DNA of 64,000 nt, taken from the NCBI GenBank assembly GCA_017965665.1, contig JAGCPN010000001.1, positions 124,001 through 188,000 on the forward strand, read 5' to 3'. The stretch is from Aeriscardovia sp. (lineage in GTDB: Bacteria > Actinomycetota > Actinomycetes > Actinomycetales > Bifidobacteriaceae). The notes beneath the pieces are model-generated. The model did no database searches and had not been told where the DNA came from. It saw only the letters and a program-made list of their open reading frames with translations. This document shows, piece after piece, positions 50,256 through 64,000 of the stretch (position 1 is the first letter of the stretch; every line of letters starts with the position of its first letter). Both the position numbers and the translations under genes were made by a program.

Positions 50256-52868
50256 CTACTTTTCCCTCTTCAGACCCTTCTTTTTGAGAAGCTCGGCCGC
50301 AACTCCTGCGGCAAGGAGCGTGGCTGCGCCGATTGCCGCGGCCACGGCGTCAGATCCGGTGGAGGCGAGGTCGTCTGCAGGCTTTGCGGACTGGACATGG
50401 ACCGCGCCGCCGGAAGGCATGCCGGTCATCGCGCCCTGTGAAGAGCCCATGGCACTGAGGACCTGGAAGGGCAGCGCAAGTATCTTCTGGGCCGTTCCGG
50501 GCTCGCTTCCCTGGCCTATGAGGGCGTGGATAGTGGGCTCGAGGTTGGTAAGTCCTACCACAATCGGGTGGGCGAAGTTGTAGTCGTTTCCGTTGACGAT
50601 GGCCTTCTGAATGGGATTGGAGGCATTGGAAGCGGAGGCGAGGGGCAGAGCGGAAGTCAGGGGAGTCTGGGCATCGGAGATGTCGCTTTGGCTGTAGGGG
50701 GCCGCAAGCCCCAGGCCCTGAATTGTCTGGTTTCCGTTCTGCATGCCGCTTACGGCGCTTTGGGTGTCGTTAATCAGGGGGGTGAGATCGCTTTGCAGCT
50801 TGTTTAGGCTGTTGATGGCGGCTCCCGGATTGGCGGCCGACTCTACGTTCTTCAAATCCTGCTGGACGCCTTGGATGGCATTGTAAGCCTTTTGAGCATC
50901 GTTAAAGACGCCCTGGGTGACGATGGCTTTTTGCCATGCCGTAGCATCGCCCAGCAGACCTCCGGTCCCTGTTCCGGAGTCGGATCCGGAAAGCAGATTG
51001 TTGGCCTGCTTTACGTAGTTGCTAAAATCGCTGTTTATCGCACCCATGTCCGAGGAGGAGTAGAGGGGGTCCTCATTGGTAGCCTCGGGCAGGGTTACGG
51101 TCTGTCCGTCGATCGTGACGGTAGGAGTCGAACCCGTGGCGTCGGAATACTGGGTGGCGGCGCTGCTCATAGCTGTTTTTATTGCCTCTCCCGCGCTGTT
51201 TGCGGCAGCGACGTCTTGCAGGGCGGACTGAATATCGGCCTTGGCCTGGGCTGCGGCAGCGGCATCGGAAGCGGAGTCTCCGGTATTTTGATCCGCCAGC
51301 CGCTTAGCGGCAGCAATCTCGTTTGCGGCGTCCTGAGCCTTGCTCAGCGCCGTCTGGGCTTCACTGGCAATCGTCTGGGCGTAGGGCTGCACGGACTGCA
51401 GGTACTTGTAGTTGGCATAGTCCTGAACCCACTGCTTCTCTGTAGCTTCCCATTTGGTTTTAGACCCAATTTCCGGCAGAGCGCTGTCGTATGTACCAAA
51501 AAGGGTGTCGTGGATCGTATGCCATATACTCGTGCCTTCAGTTCCGGTGAAGGGATTGGTAGCAGGCAAGGGGTCTACAGTCTGGCCGCCGTAATTTGGC
51601 ACGCACGAAGGAACGGTCCCGGATCCCCCTCCAAGGCCGGTCATATTCAGTATGAATGCCACCAACTGGCTCAGATCGCTCTCAGCCCCCATCTGGTTGT
51701 TGCCAAAGACGCGCGAGGTAGCCTGGGAAAGCGCCTCGTCAGGAGACTGGGAAGCCAGATCGGAATTTTCCGTTATGCTCTGCAGCTCTTCTACGCAGGC
51801 TTCCATTATCTTAAGATTTTTCAGCACGGTTGCGGCATCTGCGCTGTTGGATGTGCTGTCGGAACTTATCGCGCTGCTTACTTCGGTGATCGACTGCTTT
51901 ATCATGGGCAGAAATGTTTGAGTGTACCCATAGGGGCTGCCGCCGGGGTTGTTGTCGCCGTTAACGCCGTCCGGTGCGCGCTGGCTCCACCAGGTTTGAA
52001 GCCAGGTGTCCAAATTCTTGGCATCTGTAACCAGGGTGCCGGTGGCGGGAGAGGCGCTGTCGTTGTAGTAGCTCTTAATCTCGGTATTGATATTGTTTAG
52101 CTGGTTTTCCGCGTTCTGCTGCAAAGCCTCGGCCTTGCCAAGGATGGTAGAAGAATCGGAAGTGCTTCCGGCCGTATTTGAGGCGGTGCCGGCATTGGTG
52201 GAGAAAGTGTTGTTGGCACTGGCAAGATCGGGGTTATTTGCCGTATTTGCCGTGTTGTAGACGCTCTGGGCGGCCTTGATGGCGTCGTTTACCCCCGCTT
52301 CCGTGGCGGGGAGGTTGGTCTTGTTGTAATCGTCTACCGCGTTCTTTAGCTCGGTGCCGTACTGGGCGGAAGCGTCATTTATTATGCTCTGGAGCTGCTT
52401 TACCAGGTCCTGGAGCTGCCCCTGGGTCTTTGTGGCCCCCTGCAGGTCGGAGTTTGGAAGGTTGGGGGTCTTGAGGGTGTTTTCAACGCCGTCAAGGCCG
52501 CTTTGAACCGCCGTCAGCTTCGACATATAAGGGGTGTCGTGAAGTATCCCTTCCAAATTCTTGGTCAGGTTCGAAAGATTTTCAGCCACGGCCTGCTGCT
52601 TGGCCTGAGTCTGGTATCCCGTGGTCTGCAAGGCCAAAGATCCTAGGGCAGAGCTCGCCGCATCCAGCGAGATCTGCGCCCCTTGAAGCCCACTCAGCTT
52701 CACAGCCGAGCTCGTGGTGTTTTGGCTTTCATTGTTTGAGGGCAGGGTATCTGCAAACGATGCGGGAACCATTGAGAACATGGTCCCCAGGCCGGTCACT
52801 CCGGCAATTACCCCCACGCTTAGCTTTTGATTCACTTTGCTAGGTTTGGCATGGCGTCCTCGTGTCAT
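50256..52868 (-). CDS. Large helical LAxTG-anchored surface protein
   Basis: 870 residues. Signal peptide about 1-39 (GVIAGVTGLGTMFSMVPASFA). The mature part is almost wholly alpha-helical, rich in Ala, Ser, Asn, Gln and Thr with long coiled-coil stretches (such as AAAAAQAKADIQSALQDVAA), interrupted by a Gly/Pro/Trp-rich segment at about 290-310. The C-terminus is a sortase signal: LASTG, a hydrophobic helix (AAAIGAATLLAAGVAAELL) and KKKGLKREK. LAxTG is used by class E sortases of GC-rich actinobacteria. A TATAAT box and GGAGGAGG precede the ATG. A role in adhesion or cell contact is plausible but not shown. A decayed paralogue lies at 53660-56318. Confidence 0.9.
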   Translation of the reverse strand: MTRGRHAKPSKVNQKLSVGVIAGVTGLGTMFSMVPASFADTLPSNNESQNTTSSAVKLSGLQGAQISLDAASSALGSLALQTTGYQTQAKQQAVAENLSNLTKNLEGILHDTPYMSKLTAVQSGLDGVENTLKTPNLPNSDLQGATKTQGQLQDLVKQLQSIINDASAQYGTELKNAVDDYNKTNLPATEAGVNDAIKAAQSVYNTANTANNPDLASANNTFSTNAGTASNTAGSTSDSSTILGKAEALQQNAENQLNNINTEIKSYYNDSASPATGTLVTDAKNLDTWLQTWWSQRAPDGVNGDNNPGGSPYGYTQTFLPMIKQSITEVSSAISSDSTSNSADAATVLKNLKIMEACVEELQSITENSDLASQSPDEALSQATSRVFGNNQMGAESDLSQLVAFILNMTGLGGGSGTVPSCVPNYGGQTVDPLPATNPFTGTEGTSIWHTIHDTLFGTYDSALPEIGSKTKWEATEKQWVQDYANYKYLQSVQPYAQTIASEAQTALSKAQDAANEIAAAKRLADQNTGDSASDAAAAAQAKADIQSALQDVAAANSAGEAIKTAMSSAATQYSDATGSTPTVTIDGQTVTLPEATNEDPLYSSSDMGAINSDFSNYVKQANNLLSGSDSGTGTGGLLGDATAWQKAIVTQGVFNDAQKAYNAIQGVQQDLKNVESAANPGAAINSLNKLQSDLTPLINDTQSAVSGMQNGNQTIQGLGLAAPYSQSDISDAQTPLTSALPLASASNASNPIQKAIVNGNDYNFAHPIVVGLTNLEPTIHALIGQGSEPGTAQKILALPFQVLSAMGSSQGAMTGMPSGGAVHVQSAKPADDLASTGSDAVAAAIGAATLLAAGVAAELLKKKGLKREK
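50275..50370 (-). repeat. 96-bp block identical to the decayed paralogue, copy 1
   Basis: The stretch coding for the LASTG signal, hydrophobic helix and start of the basic tail is the same, base for base, as 53674-53769. The flanks differ, which suggests recent gene conversion or strong sequence constraint. Confidence 0.8.
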
Positions 52869-53659: not shown

Positions 53660-56318
53660 TTACTTTCTGTTTTCCTTCTTTTTGAGAAGCTCGGCCGCAA
53701 CTCCTGCGGCAAGGAGCGTGGCTGCGCCGATTGCCGCGGCCACGGCGTCAGATCCGGTGGAGGCGAGGGCGGACTTTGCCGCAGGTTTTGAGGCCTTAGC
53801 GTGAGCCTTTCCTTCAGAAGGCTTCAACTCTCCGGCCGGCATCGGGGTCAGCGGGGATTTCTCAGTGGCAGATGCAGGACTTGCATGGCCTTGGGCAGCT
53901 TCGGGAGCCGCAGAAGGTGCAGCTTTCGGAGAGAGGGACACGGCGGAAGCCGTTTTGAAGGGGAGAAATAAGGCTTTCTGGGCCTCCCCGTGCTCGCTTC
54001 CCTGCCCGATGAGCGTTCGGGCCGCGGGTTCAAGTGCGCTCACGCCTGCTGCAATCGGATGCTCTGCGTCGTAGGTGCTGCCGTCTTTGACAGCCTTCTG
54101 TATGGGGTTGGAGGCATTGGAAGCGGAAGCGAATGGCATGGCGGCAGTCAGAGGGGTCTGGGCGTCGGAGATGTCGGAATCCGAATAGGGCTCGGATTGC
54201 CCGAGGGCACGGAGCGCCTGGTTTCCGCCCGTCATGCCGTTTACGGCATCCTGAGCGCTGTTTATCAGGGGGGTGAGGTCGCTTTGCAGCCGGTTTAGGC
54301 TGTCGATGGCAGCCCCGGGGTTGGAGGCGGTCTCAACGTTATCCAGATTCTTCTCTACCTTCTGGATGTCGTTATAGGCGTTTTGTGCGTTATTGAATAC
54401 GCCCTGGGTGACGATGGCCCTTTGCCAGGATGCGGCGCCTCCCAGGAGCCCTCCGTCGCCGTTGCCGGAGGAAGATCCTGAAAGGCTCTCGCAGAGCTGC
54501 GCCATGGCGCCGTCAAAGCCGTCCTCTGCCTGGGTCACCTGCGAATGGGAGTAGAGGGCCGGCTCGGTGGTCCGGGCCGGCAGGTCTGCCGTTACTGTGA
54601 CGGATTTCCCGCCGGGGGCCAGGGGCTTTAGCACTGTGACGGTGGGATCGGAGCTCGTGGCGGTAACATACTGCGAATAGGTTCCCGCCATTTCATCTGT
54701 CACTGAAGTTCCGTAGTTGTCCGCATTTTCCAGGTCCGCCAGGGCTGCCTGGATATCCGCCAGCGCCTGCGCCGCGGCGAGGGCGTCCGAGGCGGCGCCC
54801 CGTGTTCTGCTGCGCCAGCTGCCTGGCATCCGCAATTTTTGCCTTCGCTTCCTAGGCCAGGGAGAGGACCTGGCGGGCATCGTACAAAAGCACTTCCATG
54901 TAAGGGTGAAGCGCCTGGAGGTACTCGTAGTTGGCCAAGTCGCGCGCCCAGGCCGTGCGCATGGAAGTCATACTTGAGGTTTGCAAATCCATGGAAGGAA
55001 GGCGTCCCAGGGCCTTTGTCTGAAGGGAGCTGAGATCGGCCCACAGTTTTTCCGCATTCGATCCGCTGAAGGGGTTGCCGAGAGGCTATGCCGCCCAGTC
55101 GCCGTCCCCCTCAACCTCTTAAAGGGGCTTTGCCGGCTTTCCCGCCTTGCGACTGGGGGTTATAGGTTAGGCGCCCTGTATGAAGCTAGAAAGAGAGAGG
55201 AAGGCGGAAGAACTGCTGCCGCTCAGGGCGTCATTTGTCGCTTCCCGGAAAGCTTGCTGGGGAGCCAGGGAGGCCGTAGAGCAAAACCCCCATAAGATTT
55301 TGAAGTGTTTGCACGGCCGATTTCATTATCTTAAGGTTGGCTACCACTGTTGCGGCATCGCCGGAGTTTTCAACTTTCAAGCTGTCTTCGCCCTCCCAGC
55401 TGGAAATATCGCTGAGCGCAGCGTTGATGTCTGCCAGGAACTCTGTATACCCCATGTCGTTTTCGGACCCCTTGTCGGCATCCGCAATCCATGTTTGAGC
55501 CCAGATGTCAAAATTCTTGGCCTGGGAGACGAGCGAACCGGAGGCAGCGGATGAAGAGCCGTCGTAAAGGTCGGCTGATTCATCTTGGATGTCGGTGAGC
55601 TGGGCATTCGCATTTTGAGCCGCGATCTGCGCGCTGCCTATCAGGCTGGAAGCGTCGGAGGCGCTCCCCGCCGCACTGGATGCGGTCCCCGCGTCAGTCG
55701 AGAAGGCCCCGTTTGCCGCGGAAAGGCCAGGGCTGTTTGCCGCGTTCGCCGTGTTGTAAACGCTCTTGGCGGCCTTGACGGCGTTGGCCACCCCCGCCTC
55801 AGTGGCAGGGAGGTTGGTCCTGTTGTAGTCATTTACGGCGTTCTTAAGTTCGGTGCCGTATTGGGCGGAAGCGTCGTTTATTATGCTCCGGAGCTGCCTG
55901 ACCAGATCCTGAAGCTGCCCCTGGGTCTTTGTGGCCCCCTGCAGGTCGGAGTTTGCAAGGTTGGGGGTCTTGAGGGGGTGTTTTCAACGCCGTCAAAGCC
56001 GCTTTGAACCGCCGCCAGCTTCGACATATACGGAGTGGCGTGCAGTATCCCTTCCAAATCCTTGGTCGGGGCCTGCAGACTTTCAGCTACTTCCTTCTGG
56101 GAAGACTGGCTTTGGTAAGCTTGGAGGAGCGAGGAATTTGCTGACACTGAGAGCGCCTCCAAAGAGATCCGGCACTTCTGCAGGGCCGTCAGTCCCAAGC
56201 CCGGGCCTGCTATTCTGCTTGCAGCTGTTTGGGTTTCATTGTTGGCAGGCAGGTTGTCTGCAAACGATAAGGGGACCATGGAAAACATGGTCCCCAGTCC
56301 TGTTATGCCCGCAATCAC
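53660..56318 (-). pseudogene. Decayed paralogue of the LAxTG surface protein
   Basis: The order of segments follows the intact gene at 50256: N-terminal GITGLGTMFSMVPLSFADNLPANNE, a helical part with LEGILHATPYMSKLAAVQSG, KSVYNTANAANSPG, ... AIVTQGVFNNAQNAYNDIQ, ... and the end LASTGSDAVAAAIGAATLL. They are spread over at least three frames, with breaks near 55970-55985, between 55045 and 55230 (where a central part is also missing or scrambled) and near 54800. The full N-terminal MTRGRHAK-like start is not found in frame; the first usable codon is GTG 56318. The 1220-bp 3' part is still open, and a 96-bp block at its end is identical to the intact gene. Confidence 0.85.
53674..53769 (-). repeat. 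96-bp block identical to the intact paralogue, copy 2
   Basis: Same bases as 50275-50370, coding for the LASTG signal and membrane helix. In a decayed gene such identity is unexpected unless the block was copied recently. Confidence 0.8.
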
Positions 56319-56890: not shown

Positions 56891-59803
56891 TCAGCCCAGG
56901 ATTGCGTACTTCTGTGCCCAATCCCAAAACTCTTTTCGGACCTTCGCTTTTTTTCTCTCCCTTTCTTCGCCTTCCTTTCCGAAAAACGACATAGCGGGGA
57001 GTATGTCTGCAAAGCTTCTTCCTGTAAAAGGATCGGGGTTTTTGGTGCGGATCCACTCTTTGCAAAACTCCCGGGCCTTTTCAGGCTTCAAGTTATTGTT
57101 CTTTATGAGTTGATCCAGCTCTTTTTCCCTCTCTTTTCGACGGAAATCCTCAAAGGCCTCTTTTCCGGAAGGGCTTCCCAGATCATTTAGGTACTTTAAA
57201 ATGATTTCCTTTTGGCGCCGCAGATCGGGACTGGAATCTATGACTCTGTCGATATCATCCCTCGTGGCGCCTTTTAGATTTAAGTCCAGAATATAGTCGA
57301 CGTCGATCTCCTTTTGACTTAAAAGCTTGTCTTCCCATTCCACTCCTTTGAAAGCGGCATCTTCTTCTGTGATATTGGATTTGAATTGCTCGCGAATGTC
57401 GAGGTAGGTTCCGCTATAGGTCTGAACGTCTCGGGGGGAAATCGGGTTTTCGTCTTCAAAGTCAGGGAAGGTGGACAGAAGGTTTGATTTTTTAAGCAGT
57501 TCGTTCCAATCATCCACAAACTTCCTCTTTGCCTTCTCACCCACGATTTCCTCTCCCGCAGGAAATTCACCCTGAAACTTTTGCGCAATTGCCCTGTATC
57601 CCTCACGCCTCCCTTCCTTATCCGTCCATCCGTCCATGAGCTCCCTATATGTGCGCCCGAAAATCAGGCCTTTATCTGTTTTGCCGTCAGCTCCGTAGAT
57701 GCGCAGGGATTCGTCCAATTCTCCTTCCAAATCCCTAAATGAGACGATAATGCCCCTGTCCTTTGCAGAATCCAGAATTCGGTTAGTCCTTGAAAAGGCC
57801 TGGATGAGGTTGTGTTTTCTCAGGTTTTTGTCGACCCACAGGGTGTTTAGGCGTTTGGAATCAAATCCCGTAAGGAACATGTTCACCACTATCAGAAGAT
57901 CCAGCACTCGCGCTTTCATCTTTTCCGAAACATCTCTGTAGTAGTCCTGGAAGCTTTGGGCGTCTTGCATGGAAAAGCTGCAGTTAAACCTCCGGTTGTA
58001 TTCCGAAACGGCTTCTGCCAGGAAGGCCCTGTTTTCCGGCTTGTCGGCATCCAAATCCATGTCGTCGCCGTCCTCGCCCGCAGAGGAGTAGACGATGGCG
58101 ATGGCCATTTTGGAGTTTTCCGGCCATTCCGCCTGCGCGTCCTTAAGGGCCTCCCAATATTCCTTTGCAGCCGGGATGCTCTCTGTGGCGAGGATGGAAT
58201 TGTAACGGCCCTTATGGGTGTAGGCTTTGAAGTTTTTGACGATATATTCCACATTCGCTTTTATCCGGGCCTGTGAAGGGGCGGAGGACCCCCCGGCTCC
58301 GGGGCCTACATGCGAATATTGGAAGGGGAGGACCGTGCCGTCATTGATTGCGTGTACCACGGTGTACTCGTGCAGGCGCTCTCCGAATATGTTGGGAGTT
58401 GTGGCTTCAATTTCCCTGCCTTCGCTGGAAGTCTTTTTGTCGGATTCGAAAATAGGAGTCCCCGTGAAACCGAAAAGCAGGTATTTTTTGAAGTTGTTTA
58501 CGATGTTTGAGTGCATCTTTCCGAACTGCGATCTGTGGCACTCGTCGAATATGAATACAGTGTTGAGGTTTTTCACCTTTTCCAAAGCTTCTTTCCTTCG
58601 GCACAGCGCATTGAGCTTTTGGATGGTTGTGACGATAAGCCTCCGGTTCCCGTCCTCCATCTGTGCTTTCAAGCGGCTTGAATTGGACGTGAAGTCGACG
58701 CACCCTTCTTCGTAGCTGTTGTATTCCTTTATGGTCTGGTAATCGAGGTCCTGCCTGTCTACTACGACAAGGACCTTGTCTACGCCCTCCATGCGCGAGG
58801 CCAGAGTCGCGGCTTTAAAAGAAGTCAGGGTTTTGCCGGATCCGGTGGTGTGCCAGACGTATCCTCCCTGCCTTTCCTTCCCGAAGTTGCCGTTCAGGCG
58901 CGCCTGGTTTATTTTTTCCAGGACTTTTTCCGCGGCAGCTACCTGGTAGGGGCGCATTACCAAAAGCCGCCTCCCGCCTTTTTCGTCTTTGGCCGTAAAT
59001 ACGCAGTAGCGGGTAAGGAGGCTGAGAAGCGTGTGCTTGTTGAAAAAAGCCTCCGCAAATTCGTCCAGATCGCTTATATGCCTGTTTTTCCGATCCGTCC
59101 ATCTGCAGGCAAATTTGAAGTCGTCTTCGTCCGCCCTGCGGTTTTGCTCCACGGTGTTGGAATAGTACCTTGTGTCTGCGCCGTTACTTATTACAAAGAT
59201 TTGGATGAAGTTGAAAAGCCCCATTCCGTCGGAGAAGGATCGCGCCTTGTACCTGTCTATCTGGTTGAAGGCGTTCTTCAGTCGGACGTCCCTTTTTTTC
59301 AACTCGCAGTGCACGAGCGGCAGGCCGTTTACAAGGATTGTGACGTCATACCTGTTTTTCTGCCTTCCGTCATCCGTATCGTCTATGAACTGCTCGATTA
59401 CCTGGCAGGAATTGCGGAAGAGATTTTCCTTGTCGATGAGCTTTATATTGTGAAGCTCACCCCTCTCATCGGTAAAATCTTTAACGCTGTTTTCCTGGAT
59501 GATCGAAGTAGCCTTTTCGCGGTCGAGATTGGAAAAAACTTCGTTGCAGAACCTGTCCCAATCGGCATCCGAAAAACGGTACCCGTTCAGCCTTTCGATC
59601 TGTCCTCTCAGGTTTCGTTCCAGGCCTTTTTCGTCGTGAAAGTCCATGTAGTCATAGCCGAGATCGCAGAGGGAATCAATAAATTCCTTTTCAAGTTGGC
59701 TTTCGGATTGGTACTCTCGACTCTTCGGCCTCTTTTTCAACTCGTCTTTGTTGGCCAGAACAGTGGAAAAGTCTCCCTGGCTCACAAGATTGAAGGAGCC
59801 CAT
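56891..59803 (-). CDS. hsdR: Type I restriction enzyme, R subunit
   Basis: 970 residues. It translocates and cleaves unmodified DNA together with HsdM and HsdS. The N-terminal nuclease domain has RYDVTILVNGLPLVHCELKKRD (the D...ExK core, about 150-172). The helicase has HTTGSGKTLTSFKA (Walker A), VVVDRQDLDYQ, FDECHRSQFG (DEAH-like box), LLFGFTGTPIF, and a late FLTGFDSKRLNTLWVDKNLRKHNLIQAFSRTNR. The C-terminal helical part is complete to the stop. Its ATG overlaps the hsdS stop by one base (TAATG). Confidence 0.95.
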   Translation of the reverse strand: MGSFNLVSQGDFSTVLANKDELKKRPKSREYQSESQLEKEFIDSLCDLGYDYMDFHDEKGLERNLRGQIERLNGYRFSDADWDRFCNEVFSNLDREKATSIIQENSVKDFTDERGELHNIKLIDKENLFRNSCQVIEQFIDDTDDGRQKNRYDVTILVNGLPLVHCELKKRDVRLKNAFNQIDRYKARSFSDGMGLFNFIQIFVISNGADTRYYSNTVEQNRRADEDDFKFACRWTDRKNRHISDLDEFAEAFFNKHTLLSLLTRYCVFTAKDEKGGRRLLVMRPYQVAAAEKVLEKINQARLNGNFGKERQGGYVWHTTGSGKTLTSFKAATLASRMEGVDKVLVVVDRQDLDYQTIKEYNSYEEGCVDFTSNSSRLKAQMEDGNRRLIVTTIQKLNALCRRKEALEKVKNLNTVFIFDECHRSQFGKMHSNIVNNFKKYLLFGFTGTPIFESDKKTSSEGREIEATTPNIFGERLHEYTVVHAINDGTVLPFQYSHVGPGAGGSSAPSQARIKANVEYIVKNFKAYTHKGRYNSILATESIPAAKEYWEALKDAQAEWPENSKMAIAIVYSSAGEDGDDMDLDADKPENRAFLAEAVSEYNRRFNCSFSMQDAQSFQDYYRDVSEKMKARVLDLLIVVNMFLTGFDSKRLNTLWVDKNLRKHNLIQAFSRTNRILDSAKDRGIIVSFRDLEGELDESLRIYGADGKTDKGLIFGRTYRELMDGWTDKEGRREGYRAIAQKFQGEFPAGEEIVGEKAKRKFVDDWNELLKKSNLLSTFPDFEDENPISPRDVQTYSGTYLDIREQFKSNITEEDAAFKGVEWEDKLLSQKEIDVDYILDLNLKGATRDDIDRVIDSSPDLRRQKEIILKYLNDLGSPSGKEAFEDFRRKEREKELDQLIKNNNLKPEKAREFCKEWIRTKNPDPFTGRSFADILPAMSFFGKEGEERERKKAKVRKEFWDWAQKYAILG

Positions 59804-60963
59804 TACTTTTCGCCCCTCCCTGAAAGAGCATTGAACATCGCATCCCTGTACCAGGCTATTTGTTCGCGCCTGAGGAAAATCTCGGCAGGAAGGCCCTCCT
59901 GCATGGAAGAAGTGAGAGAAGTGAACTTGTCCAGGGTAGTCGCGATCTTCTTTTGCACATCAAGCGGAGGAAGGGGCATACGGAGCGAGAGTATTGCAGA
60001 GGCATGAAGATGGGTAATTGCAGGCCCCTGTCCCTTGGACTGGAGCAAAGGCTGGTTTTCTTTGAGGAAATAATACAGGTACTTGTCGCTTAGCTTTCCT
60101 CGATCATAATCGCTTATCACAAAGCATCCGCTGCTGGCCCAAAATGATGATGGCTGCCAATTTACAAATCCGGAAGCCCCGCCTTCGGCAATCGTAGTTT
60201 TACCTCCGTCAAAGTTGCATTCGCTCCAATATCCCGAAGGCTGCATCCCGCCGTTGATCACGGGAACAGGACTTTTCGCGGTTGGAATTTTTGAGCACAA
60301 TTCCTTGTTGAGCTGTTTTCCTTTAACGATTGTGACAAGATCTTTGAGGAGGACTTCCGGGGCCCCGTTTTGAATAAGCTTCGCCCTGTAAAAGCCGTAT
60401 TGCCTGTTTCTTTCCTCCAGCTCCGTCTCCAGCTCCGTCTCCAGCTCCGTCTCCAGCTCCGTGAACTTGTCCAAAGTGCCTGCGATCCTTTTCTGCACTT
60501 CGAGGGGCGGAAGGGGAATAGCAAGTGAGTCTGTATCAAATGTACTGATCTGAGGCATGCTGGGGCGCATTGCGGCAATTTGATTGAGGTACGGAAGCTG
60601 GGTTCTGAGGTAGTAATACAGATACTTGATGTCTATATTCCGATTTTTGGAAGTATAAGCCCACATCTCATTTTTAAATGTGAACTTTCCGTCGCAATAA
60701 ATACAATCGATAATTCCGCGGGACTGAACTAGGACGGAAGGTACCGTTATCACATTGGCATTTGGAATTGCATTTTCAAATGCCTTTACATGAGTTTTAC
60801 CGCCGGCAAATATATCTGTATCTCCCAAAGGATTTGCTATTTGCTTCATAAGAGCAGCTGTAATTCCGGGAGTTCCCTTAAGCTTTCTGCAGATAGTTCC
60901 CAATTTGTATTGCTCTACCCCATGGGGGCACTGTTTTTTCAGCAGCTCTTCGAATGTTTCCAT
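59803..60963 (-). CDS. hsdS: Type I restriction-modification specificity subunit
   Basis: 386 residues with two target-recognition domains (about 1-145 and 195-330), each followed by a conserved helical region: IPLPPLEVQKRIAGTLDKFTELE (about 150-172) and MPLPPLDVQKKIATTLDKFTSL (about 333-355). The first helix contains a run of TELE repeats coded by a 12-bp tandem repeat, like the TAEL repeats of EcoR124-type enzymes that set the gap between half-sites. Start and stop overlap hsdM and hsdR by one base each. Confidence 0.93.
   Translation of the reverse strand: METFEELLKKQCPHGVEQYKLGTICRKLKGTPGITAALMKQIANPLGDTDIFAGGKTHVKAFENAIPNANVITVPSVLVQSRGIIDCIYCDGKFTFKNEMWAYTSKNRNIDIKYLYYYLRTQLPYLNQIAAMRPSMPQISTFDTDSLAIPLPPLEVQKRIAGTLDKFTELETELETELETELEERNRQYGFYRAKLIQNGAPEVLLKDLVTIVKGKQLNKELCSKIPTAKSPVPVINGGMQPSGYWSECNFDGGKTTIAEGGASGFVNWQPSSFWASSGCFVISDYDRGKLSDKYLYYFLKENQPLLQSKGQGPAITHLHASAILSLRMPLPPLDVQKKIATTLDKFTSLTSSMQEGLPAEIFLRREQIAWYRDAMFNALSGRGEK
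60416..60463 (-). repeat. 12-bp tandem repeat in hsdS (spacer helix)
   Basis: The unit CAGCTCCGTCTC (plus strand) occurs about four times with no change, coding (TELE)n. The number of units can change by slippage without breaking the frame, and would lengthen or shorten the spacer of the recognition site. Confidence 0.85.
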
Positions 60964-62564
60964 TAAAACCCCAGCCCCTTTATAAGTTCATCCAGTTCGG
61001 CTCTGGTTTTTTCCTCCCGTTCTACGGTCTGCGATATTTCCCGGTTGAGGGCCCTTATGTCTACCTCTTCTTTGCCGTTTTCCTTTTGCACGTACAGGTT
61101 TACGGCAAGGCTCCAGTTTTGAGTTTCAATTTCTTTCATGGAGGCTAAATAGGACTTCTCAGATTTTGTTTCCCTCTCCTGCAGCAAGGCGAGGATATGG
61201 CCTATATTTTCATCGGTGAGTTTATTTTTGTTTCCCTCGTGCTTAAATTCATCCGAAGCGTCCACAAAGAGCACTTTGGAATCTTTCTTGTTTTTTCTGA
61301 GCACCAGAATGCAGGTCGAAATGGAAGTTCCGAAGAAGAGGTTTTCCGGAAGGGATATTACCGAATCTACGTAGTTGTTTTCCGTCATCCACTTTCTAAT
61401 CTGCCCTTCGGCTCCGGCCCTGTAGAAGATGCCGGGGAAGCAGACTATGGCGGCGCACCCCTTGTCTTTCAGATAATAAAGGGCATGCTCTGCAAAGGAC
61501 CAGTCGGCCTTGCCCTTCGGGGCGAGTTTGCCTGCCCTGCTGAAGCGGGGATCGTTTATAAGCGTGGGATCCGCATCGCCCTTCCAGCTGATGGAGTAAG
61601 GCGGATTTGAAACTATGCACTCAAACCTGTCGTCTACCGAATCTTGGGAAGAGGGGAGGAAGGCAGGCTTTAAAAGCGTATCTTCACAGTAGATGTCGAA
61701 TTTTTTAAAGGGTATTTCGTGCAGAATCATGTTCATGCGAGAAAGGTTGTAAACCGTGAGGTTTACGTCTTGGCCGTAAAAGCCATCTACGTTTTCTGCG
61801 CCCAGTATCTTTGCGAATTTCAGGAGCAGGCCTCCGCTCCCGCAGGTGGGATCATATACGCTCCCCACCCTCTCTTTGTACCCGCTTTCGCGAGCCGGAT
61901 CCTGCAGGGCAATTTTAGCCAGGAGCTTTCCCACCTCCGGAGGGGTGAAGAATTCCCCTCCGCTTTTTCCGGCTTTCGAAGCGTACATCGTTATAAGAAA
62001 TTCGTAGGCGTCTCCGAAAGTATCTCTTGAAGAGCCGGGGACATCTGAAACCTGGAAGCTTTCAATTCCTAAAAGCAGCGTTCGCAGGGTCTCGCACTTT
62101 TTTTCAAGAGTGCTTCCCAATTTGTTGCTGGATACGTCAAAGTCATCGAAGAGGCCCTTAAAGGCTTTTTCGGAGGGCCGTCCTACGGTGGAATCAATGA
62201 TTTGTCTGAAAACCCGTTCGAGTTTGATGTTGAGGTCCCGGCAATTTTTCTTCGCATCTTCTGCCACATTGCAGAAAAGCTGGCTGGGAAGGATGCAAAA
62301 ACCGTTTTCCTCTATAAGTCCTTCCCTTATTTCCGTGCCTACCTGGCTGTCTTCCAGGTCCCTGTAGCGAAAGCCTTCATTGCCTGCCGCACGCTCGTTT
62401 GAATTTATCCGGTCTTCAAGGCTTTCGGAGAGGAACCGGTAGAAAAGCGCTCCCAGCACATATTGCTTGAAGTCCCATCCGTCTACCGTTCCGCGCAGAT
62501 CATCAGCTATCTTCCAGATGGAAGAATTGACTCTCTCTCTCTCTCTCTCTTGAGGACTTTCCAT
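60963..62564 (-). CDS. hsdM: Type I restriction-modification methyltransferase subunit
   Basis: 533 residues. It methylates adenine with S-adenosylmethionine. The N-terminal helical domain (IWKIADDLRGTVDGWDFKQYVLGALFYRFLSE) is followed by the AdoMet motif DPTCGSGGLLLKFAK and the catalytic NPPYS. The coding start has an unusual run ERERER written by a (GA)10 tract at codons 5-12. An AAAGGA site precedes the ATG. First gene of the hsdM-hsdS-hsdR operon. Confidence 0.95.
   Translation of the reverse strand: MESPQERERERVNSSIWKIADDLRGTVDGWDFKQYVLGALFYRFLSESLEDRINSNERAAGNEGFRYRDLEDSQVGTEIREGLIEENGFCILPSQLFCNVAEDAKKNCRDLNIKLERVFRQIIDSTVGRPSEKAFKGLFDDFDVSSNKLGSTLEKKCETLRTLLLGIESFQVSDVPGSSRDTFGDAYEFLITMYASKAGKSGGEFFTPPEVGKLLAKIALQDPARESGYKERVGSVYDPTCGSGGLLLKFAKILGAENVDGFYGQDVNLTVYNLSRMNMILHEIPFKKFDIYCEDTLLKPAFLPSSQDSVDDRFECIVSNPPYSISWKGDADPTLINDPRFSRAGKLAPKGKADWSFAEHALYYLKDKGCAAIVCFPGIFYRAGAEGQIRKWMTENNYVDSVISLPENLFFGTSISTCILVLRKNKKDSKVLFVDASDEFKHEGNKNKLTDENIGHILALLQERETKSEKSYLASMKEIETQNWSLAVNLYVQKENGKEEVDIRALNREISQTVEREEKTRAELDELIKGLGF
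62531..62550 (-). repeat. (GA)10 dinucleotide tract at the start of hsdM
   Basis: Twenty bases of perfect CT repeat on the plus strand, 14 bases inside the hsdM coding start. Change by one or two units would shift the frame, so hsdM may be phase-variable. Confidence 0.9.
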
Positions 62565-62799
62565 ATGCGTCCTTTCAAATCGACAATTAAATACTGACTA
62601 TATGCTAGAGCTGATAATGAAGTTTATGCAAGTATAATTTACGGAAATGTAAATCAGATATTTGTCCCGCCTGCAGCCCCGCAATGCTCCGGCAGAGGCG
62701 GTCTCAAAATTGGAAAAAGTTTTTTCCCTCAAATTTATAATTGATAAATAATACGGGCTGCGGCCAGGGCCGCAGAGGTTTACTAGGACGGGAAAAAAG

Positions 62800-64000
62800 A
62801 TGAGCCCTGAACTGCTAGGGGAAAAAATACATGATATATGCGTAAATCTGGCCTCCAAAGGCGAGCTGGGAAAGCTTGAGGCGGACCAGGTTCCTTCATA
62901 CGACAAGATCGCGGTCAAGAGGCCTAAGAACTCCGCTTTCGGGACCTGGGCCACGCCGATTGCCATGCAACTGGCATCCAAGGCGCAGCTCCCTGCTGCC
63001 GAGATAGCCGACAGGATTGCAAAGGAGCTTAAGGAGGTCAAAGGCGTCGAAGACGCCGTCGCTGCCGGCAAGGGTTTTGTAAATATAACCCTCAGCCCCG
63101 ATTCCGCTACCGAAGTCGTAGACAAGATTCTCGAAGAGAAAAAGAACTTCGGACGAAACGGGCATCTCAAGGGAACGACTATAAATCTCGAGTACGTTTC
63201 GGCCAATCCTACGGGCCCCATTCACATCGGCGGCGCCAGATGGGCTGCCATAGGGGATTCGCTTTCCAGGATTTTGACGGCCAACGGGGCCAAGGTAGTG
63301 AGGGAGTACTATTTCAATGATCACGGAAAGCAGATAGACCGCTTTGCCAATTCCCTCATGGCCTGGGCCAACGGAGATCCCACCCCTGAAGACGGGTACA
63401 AGGGGGCATACATAGGCGAGATCGCGTCCAAAGTAATAGATCAGGCAAAGAAGGATGGGGTCAACATCCTTTCCCTGCCCAAAATTGAGGGCGAAGGCGG
63501 GCAGCTTGAGGAGTTCCGCAAGAGAGCCGTGCCCATGATGTTTGATGAGATCAAAGATTCCCTGCATAACTTCGGATCCGACTTCGACGTCTGGTTCCAT
63601 GAGCAGAGCCTGCATGACAGCGGCTCCACCCAGAAGGCAATAGACGTCCTCAGAGACAAGGGGGACATCTACGAGAAGGACGGCGCCACCTGGTTCGCAT
63701 CCACCAAGTACGGGGATGACAAGGACAGAGTGATAATAAAATCCGACGGCAACCTTACCTATTTTGCCCCGGACGTCGCCTATTACTTTAACAAGCGCCA
63801 CAGGGCCGAAGATCCTGCAGATGTGGCGATCTACATGCTGGGGGCCGACCACTCCGGCTATATCGGCAGGCTGATGGCTGTCTGCGCGGCTTACGGGGAT
63901 GAACCGCAGAAGGCGGCGCAGGTCCTCCTAGGCCAGATGGTCACAGTCTCCTCCAATGGCAAGCCCGTCAGGATGAGCAAGAGAGCCGGCACCGTCGTCA
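62800..64000 (+). CDS. argS: Arginyl-tRNA synthetase, 5' part (runs off the right edge)
   Basis: The first 400 residues are present; no stop occurs before the window ends. It charges tRNA-Arg. The N-terminal additional domain (about 1-110) is followed by the class I motif ANPTGPIHIGGARWAAIGDSL (HIGH type, in parts), REYYFNDHGKQIDRF, YFAPDVAYYFNKRHR and MLGADHSGYIGRL, then PVRMSKRAGTVV at the edge (KMSK-like). GGACGGG precedes the ATG. It is divergent from hsdM with 235 bp of AT-rich DNA between, holding the promoters of both. Confidence 0.95.
   Translation, partial: MSPELLGEKIHDICVNLASKGELGKLEADQVPSYDKIAVKRPKNSAFGTWATPIAMQLASKAQLPAAEIADRIAKELKEVKGVEDAVAAGKGFVNITLSPDSATEVVDKILEEKKNFGRNGHLKGTTINLEYVSANPTGPIHIGGARWAAIGDSLSRILTANGAKVVREYYFNDHGKQIDRFANSLMAWANGDPTPEDGYKGAYIGEIASKVIDQAKKDGVNILSLPKIEGEGGQLEEFRKRAVPMMFDEIKDSLHNFGSDFDVWFHEQSLHDSGSTQKAIDVLRDKGDIYEKDGATWFASTKYGDDKDRVIIKSDGNLTYFAPDVAYYFNKRHRAEDPADVAIYMLGADHSGYIGRLMAVCAAYGDEPQKAAQVLLGQMVTVSSNGKPVRMSKRAGTVV

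What the first reader, a model, noticed from the sequence alone, without database searches (positions are those of the whole stretch)
62531..62564. Phase-variable type I methyltransferase: (GA)10 tract in the first codons of hsdM
A perfect 20-base dinucleotide repeat encodes ERERER near the N-terminus. Slippage by one unit would shift the frame and silence hsdM, and through it restriction and modification. Dinucleotide tracts of this length are rare in coding DNA and are a hallmark of phase variation.
Basis: partly seen in the sequence, partly recalled or inferred. Interest (0 to 1): 0.7.

Follow-up and report, generated by a model that had tools for sequence, protein, structure and literature searches.

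The report
AG-repeat switch on DNA-methylating defence gene
A run of ten AG repeats at the start of a bacterial DNA-defence (restriction-modification) gene very probably acts as a random on/off switch: it is in the 'on' length here and in an 'off' length in five related genomes, and in this small-genome relative of the bifidobacteria such long AG repeats were found only in DNA-defence genes.

Summary
In detail: (AG)10 lies on the coding strand of hsdM, codons 6-11 (ERERER), and is the only AG run of 7 or more units in the 785-kb genome. The gene heads a complete EcoR124-like (Type IC) hsdM-hsdS-hsdR operon. hsdM is open only when the repeat number is 1 modulo 3 (7, 10); other lengths tested hit a stop by codon 34. 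In 5 of 6 congeneric genomes the same tract, with the same ATG and spacing, has 8 units, so hsdM is out of frame, yet it stays intact under purifying selection (dN/dS 0.05-0.19). The window genome is the ON exception; n=8 looks ancestral. Across the seven genus genomes all 11 AG tracts of 7 or more units lie in restriction-modification genes (Type I hsdM, Type II methylase, Type III mod, a Type ISP-like fusion): 3 in open frame, 8 broken. hsdS carries a second variable repeat (12 bp, 3-7 copies), as in EcoR124I/II. Phase variation by slippage is well supported by anatomy and comparison, but no reads or within-species data were available, and the identical n=8 in five species is an unexplained stability. 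It is a new member of a known kind.

The parts
62531..62550 (-). (AG)10 tract, codons 6-11 of hsdM (ERERER); proposed slippage switch
   Evidence: orthologous tract at n=8 in 5 congeners
62562..62576 (-). ATG start (62562-62564) and GAAAGGA ribosome-binding-like site (62570-62576) of hsdM
   Evidence: read from sequence; same ATG, ATG-to-tract spacing and GAAAGG in all six genomes
60963..62564 (-). hsdM, Type I methyltransferase subunit, 533 aa, ON frame
   Evidence: TIGR00497, PF02384, PF12161; nearest solved structure EcoR124 M, 7bst_D
59803..60963 (-). hsdS, specificity subunit, 386 aa; start overlaps the hsdM stop by one base
   Evidence: PF01420, PADLOC Specificity_I, 7bst_A
60415..60462 (-). 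four perfect 12-bp repeats (Thr-Glu-Leu-Glu x4) in the spacer of hsdS; copy number 3, 3, 4, 4, 7 in five genomes
   Evidence: TRF score 96; relatives
56891..59803 (-). hsdR, restriction subunit, 970 aa; start overlaps the hsdS stop by one base
   Evidence: TIGR00348, PF04313, PF12008 EcoR124_C; PADLOC REase_I 915 bits

Best explanation
This is a phase-variable Type IC restriction-modification operon. The (AG)n tract just inside hsdM gains or loses units by slipped-strand mispairing at replication. Lengths of 7 or 10 units keep hsdM open (ON); other lengths end translation within about 35 codons (OFF). OFF removes HsdM, and because both the methylase (M2S) and the nuclease (R2M2S) need HsdM, modification and restriction go off together, which avoids cutting the cell's own DNA. 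The tract lies in a weakly conserved leader before the HsdM fold, so 7 or 10 units should both give a working protein. A second repeat, 12 bp in the hsdS spacer, can change the spacing of the recognition site in the ON state. Shown: the tract, the frame consequences, the length difference between species, purifying selection on hsdM, and confinement of long AG tracts in this genus to R-M genes. Inferred: slippage in living populations, loss of activity when OFF, the effect of hsdS repeats, any effect on gene expression.
For: Of the lengths 6 to 12, only 7 and 10 are open in all six genomes. The window has n=10 (ON); G001, G002, G003, G005 and G006 have n=8 (OFF) with identical ATG-to-tract spacing, and no ATG, GTG or TTG stands between the upstream stop and the tract in the hsdM frame. 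hsdM is otherwise intact: 522-523 aa after the tract in the four complete n=8 copies, open to the contig end (112 aa) in G003; dN/dS is 0.05-0.19 over 15 pairs. All 11 (AG)>=7 tracts in 7 genomes lie in R-M genes. At the Type II methylase two species differ (n=8, n=7), both frame-broken, both open at n=6 or 9. (AC)6 and (GC)6 are absent from all 7 genomes. 0 of 103 non-genus hsdM relatives has a dinucleotide run of 5 or more units around the start. Precedents: Mycoplasma mycoides mod, AG10 active and AG12 inactive (PMC3498834, passages); H. influenzae hsdM switching by repeats (PMC7394358, passages); slippage measured in Bifidobacterium breve G-tracts (PMC9187656, passages).
Against: All five relatives carry exactly n=8 although dS between pairs of them runs from about 0.3 to over 2; a fast-slipping tract should differ in length. 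One genome per species, mostly draft assemblies, no reads: variation within a species was not seen. The one viral-collection scan for further copies found none. The n=10 length rests on one assembly.
Confidence: 0.85

Rival explanations
1. Programmed slippage: n=8 is held by selection, and a small, steady share of in-frame HsdM is made from the out-of-frame gene by transcriptional or ribosomal slippage on the AG run. The locus is a fixed low-expression device, and n=10 in the window is a full-strength variant.
For: n=8 in 5 of 6 congeners despite high dS; hsdM under purifying selection although OFF in the assembled sequence.
Against: The other AG tracts of the genus are 7, 8, 9, 9 and 10 units long, in both open and broken frames, as random switching gives; no slippage signal beyond the repeat itself was seen; the known AG-repeat precedent is read as replication slippage by its authors (PMC3498834).
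Confidence: 0.08
2. A chance ER-rich leader with no switching: the repeat is only how these residues happen to be coded.
For: The aligned EcoR124 M leader is also polar (QQRAELHRQ).
Against: n=8 in five relatives puts the start codon out of frame, which a mere coding quirk would not survive; the chance of all three ER pairs being GAG-AGA from local codon use is 2.5e-4 (codon counts of five window genes); AG tracts of 7 or more units are confined to R-M genes in the genus.
Confidence: 0.04
3. Assembly or sequencing error: the true length is 8 (or another number) everywhere.
For: Repeats are error-prone and the window genome is the only one of six with n=10 at this locus.
Against: A dinucleotide run of 20 bases fits inside one short read (general knowledge); the held assemblies give 7, 8, 9 and 10 at different loci. 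An error would make the window OFF, not abolish the switch.
Confidence: 0.03

Closest known systems
Phase-variable hsdM of nontypeable Haemophilus influenzae (described in passages of PMC7394358)
   Same: Type I hsdM switched ON/OFF by a simple repeat inside the reading frame
   Different: Different repeat unit (a pentanucleotide, as I recall; not seen in a call) and a different phylum
MmyCI mod of Mycoplasma mycoides subsp. capri (PMC3498834)
   Same: AG dinucleotide repeat in a methylase gene, ON at 10 and OFF at 12 units, position conserved with varying length among relatives
   Different: Type III mod, repeat beginning at nucleotide 320 of the gene rather than at codon 6
EcoR124I/EcoR124II (Type IC)
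   Same: Nearest solved M and S chains; a 12-bp, 4-residue repeat in hsdS that differs in copy number (TAEL x2 or x3; PMC3874165, passages)
   Different: The EcoR124 M leader aligned has no ER repeat; the hsdS repeat here is TELE/SELE with 3-7 copies
G-tract slippage switch of Bifidobacterium breve pili (PMC9187656, passages)
   Same: Replication-slippage ON/OFF switch in the same family of bacteria
   Different: Homopolymer in pilus genes, not a dinucleotide in R-M genes

Membership tests
Type IC (EcoR124-like) restriction-modification system | hsdM, hsdS and hsdR in one operon | tested here: met
   three adjacent ORFs, one-base overlaps, family matches
Type IC (EcoR124-like) restriction-modification system | subunits closest to EcoR124 (HsdR with EcoR124_C domain, M and S nearest 7bst) | tested here: met
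   PF12008 3.4e-37; 7bst_D 2.3e-149, 7bst_A 2.3e-21
Type IC (EcoR124-like) restriction-modification system | short in-frame repeat in the S-subunit spacer with variable copy number | tested here: met
   TELE/SELE repeats 4, 7, 3, 3, 4 copies in G000, G001, G002, G005, G006
Type IC (EcoR124-like) restriction-modification system | m6A methylation of a bipartite site and ATP-dependent cleavage | not testable with these tools
   needs methylome and enzyme assay
Repeat-driven phase-variable methyltransferase | simple repeat in the reading frame whose unit is not a multiple of three | tested here: met
   (AG)10 in codons 6-11
Repeat-driven phase-variable methyltransferase | both ON and OFF lengths occur in nature | tested here: met
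   n=10 in 1, n=8 in 5 genomes of the genus, one genome per species
Repeat-driven phase-variable methyltransferase | gene kept functional although often OFF | tested here: met
   no inactivating change in the copies read; dN/dS 0.05-0.19
Repeat-driven phase-variable methyltransferase | length changes within a clone or species | not testable with these tools
   no reads, one genome per species
Phasevarion | switching alters expression of a set of genes | not testable with these tools
   needs ON/OFF transcriptomes

The most novel reading that the evidence does not exclude
Small-genome relatives of the bifidobacteria keep many of their restriction-modification genes under repeat switches, AG runs and G runs that arose independently in Type I, II, III and ISP-like genes. 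For hsdM the OFF length of 8 units is itself conserved by selection across species: a standing OFF state one lost unit away from ON (n=7), or a leaky slippage state, so that rare immune cells are held in reserve within a mostly unprotected population.
Probability: 0.3. Interest if true: 0.7.

Novelty: new member of a known kind. Interest (0 to 1): 0.5.

Why it matters
Phase-variable R-M systems have mostly been studied in pathogens (general knowledge). Here the same trick is seen at several unrelated R-M genes in Bifidobacteriaceae with genomes under 1 Mb, with AG tracts of 7 or more units found in no other kind of gene in the seven genomes. If confirmed, it would make these bacteria a compact test of why immunity is gambled on at random, and it warns that R-M content read from one assembly can misstate the defences of the population.

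Tried and rejected
Alternative start codon for the n=8 copies: rejected, since no ATG, GTG or TTG lies between the upstream stop and the tract in the hsdM frame. Dead gene: rejected on intact frames and low dN/dS. Recent transfer of the 5' end between species: judged unlikely because the bases next to the tract differ between genomes; not tested formally. A tract common to all hsdM genes: rejected, 0 of 103 non-genus loci with a dinucleotide run of 5 or more units within -150..+60; 8 of 103 had some other short run (seven with A or T homopolymers, one (AAC)4, L093). Further copies in the viral collection: none. No structure prediction was run, because the nearest solved chain already places the tract at the very start of the alignment. 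The 2020 survey of repeats in Type I systems, recalled by its DOI, is not held; its 10% figure is taken from PMC7394358.

Full report
What is there. On the minus strand, 56891-62564 holds a three-gene operon hsdM (60963-62564), hsdS (59803-60963) and hsdR (56891-59803), each start overlapping the previous stop by one base. Family models name all three, and EcoR124 is the nearest solved structure for M and S. Divergent from it is argS at 62800 onward. The (AG)10 tract at 62531-62550 covers hsdM codons 6-11; it is the only (AG)>=7 tract of the 785-kb genome, and 0 of 100 shuffles of the window contain one.

Where it comes from. One congener's contig (G006:C22) has the same length, 13,165 bases, as the named record JAFYJT010000015.1, 'Aeriscardovia sp. 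isolate RGIG7154', and the same sequence around the hsdM start. I therefore call the genus Aeriscardovia-like. The cultured A. aeriphila has a 1.63-Mb genome (PMC5540593, passages), about twice as large, so the genus name is tentative.

Frame logic. With the ATG that follows the GAAAGG site, hsdM is open at n=7 and 10 (and 13 in the window sequence) and closed at the other lengths tested; for n=6 to 12 in the six genomes the stop falls at codon 11 to 34. The tract aligns with the leader of EcoR124 M (QQRAELHRQ) just before the conserved segment that follows, so two extra residues should be harmless (inference).

Comparison. Of the 6 other genomes held for the genus, 5 have this hsdM with a tract at the same place; G004 has no match. 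All five have n=8 and the same ATG and spacing, hence OFF. No other start codon is available upstream in the hsdM frame. hsdM after the tract runs 523, 522, 522 and 522 codons in G001, G002, G005 and G006, and to the contig end in G003. Pairwise dN/dS over the 15 pairs is 0.05 to 0.19 and dS 0.15 to 2.5, the high values being near saturation; pairs with G003 rest on 112 codons. The nearest relative, G003 (dS 0.15), has n=8, so n=8 is probably ancestral and n=10 derived in the window's lineage (parsimony; no tree was built). So hsdM has been kept working over a long time although the assembled sequence is OFF in five of six genomes: either it is ON often enough, or the OFF frame leaks.

AG tracts in the genus. 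A scan for (AG)6 or longer in the 7 genomes gives 12 tracts. One of exactly six units is in a ribosomal-protein-like ORF of G005 (named by eye). The other 11, of 7 or more units, are all in R-M genes: hsdM in six genomes; a Type II methylase (PADLOC PDLC03375) in G001 (n=8, broken), G004 (n=7, broken) and G003 (n=9, open, at a contig edge and at a different site in the protein); a Type ISP/IIG-like fusion in G002 (n=9, broken just after its GTGKT segment); a Type III mod in G005 (n=10, open). The frame is open in 3 of 11 (G000 hsdM, G003 methylase, G005 mod) and broken in 8 of 11. Random frames would give about a third open; the five n=8 hsdM copies are not independent draws. (AC)6 and (GC)6 occur in 0 of 7 genomes; (AT)6 in 2 of 7, genes not examined. 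In the rest of the family (AG)7 occurs in 9 of 144 genomes. ORFs with the two methylase domains plus hsdS and hsdR make up roughly 2% of the window genome by my own sum of ORF lengths, so five separate tract sites all falling in R-M genes is far beyond chance, even if the R-M share were several times larger.

Second repeat. hsdS carries TELE or SELE repeats in the spacer between its two recognition domains: 4, 7, 3, 3 and 4 copies in G000, G001, G002, G005 and G006 (in G000 four perfect 12-bp copies); G003's contig ends before hsdS. In EcoR124I/II two or three TAEL copies set the gap of the recognition site (PMC3874165, passages). The same effect here is inference.

Mechanism. Best reading: slippage in the tract toggles hsdM; OFF removes both activities, because HsdM is shared; the one-base gene overlaps suggest that an early stop would also lower hsdS and hsdR translation (inference). 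Slippage switching has been measured in the same family for pilus G-tracts (PMC9187656, passages), and an AG10/AG12 ON/OFF pair is described for a Mycoplasma mod gene (PMC3498834, abstract and passages).

What does not fit. Five species share exactly n=8. If the tract slipped fast and length were neutral, lengths should differ. Selection for OFF, slow slippage at eight units, or a programmed leak could each explain it; I cannot separate them. No read-level or within-species evidence was available.

Novelty. Repeat-switched Type I and Type III systems are well known; almost 10% of Type I systems are said to carry such repeats (PMC7394358, passages). Searches for Aeriscardovia with restriction-modification (1 paper, on family genomics), Aeriscardovia with phase variation (0 papers), and Bifidobacteriaceae with phase-variable and methyltransferase (1 paper, on pili) found no description of this one (open-licence papers only). 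It is a new member of a known kind; the spread of tracts over R-M types within one genus is the more interesting part.

Noticed in passing
L223 (G000:C8:1-2500), G run at 282-290: The window's own genome has a second candidate switch: a G9 run inside a Type III mod gene, open frame here; relatives have G9 open in G005 (L232) and G10 broken in G004 (L248, matched to the others by eye).
   Followed up: partly
L237 (G006:C31), L230 (G005:C12), L234 (G006:C8), L255 (G002:C9): G9-G10 runs in Type II methylase genes, all four frame-broken. In G006:C31 the run lies a few codons from where G001 and G004 carry the AG tract. Of 35 distinct G>=9 sites in the 7 genomes, 7 are in methylase genes by family match or likeness to one; others lie in or near surface-protein-like or unnamed ORFs.
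   Followed up: partly
L231 (G005:C12), L238, L242, L254; L224 (G005:C3): C runs near the start of similar genes in four genomes, weakly REase-like in the one tested (L231, 1.3e-5), and a G11 run in the leader of an ORF with a GAPGTGKT motif that matches Type II REase models.
   Followed up: partly
L158 (G009:C23), L161 (G103:C4), L157 (G007:C19): (AG)7 runs inside ORFs that look like hsdS (by eye; no family search done) in two other genera of the family; G007 has AG13 at the 5' end of a secreted-looking ORF.
   Followed up: no
window 50256-52868 and 53660-56318 (-): A large surface-protein-like ORF with an LASTG-type end lies near a second, frame-broken relative of it just downstream of hsdR, possibly a silent or decayed copy.
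   Followed up: no
G000:C1:115888-115901: (AT)7 run in the window's genome, outside the window.
   Followed up: no
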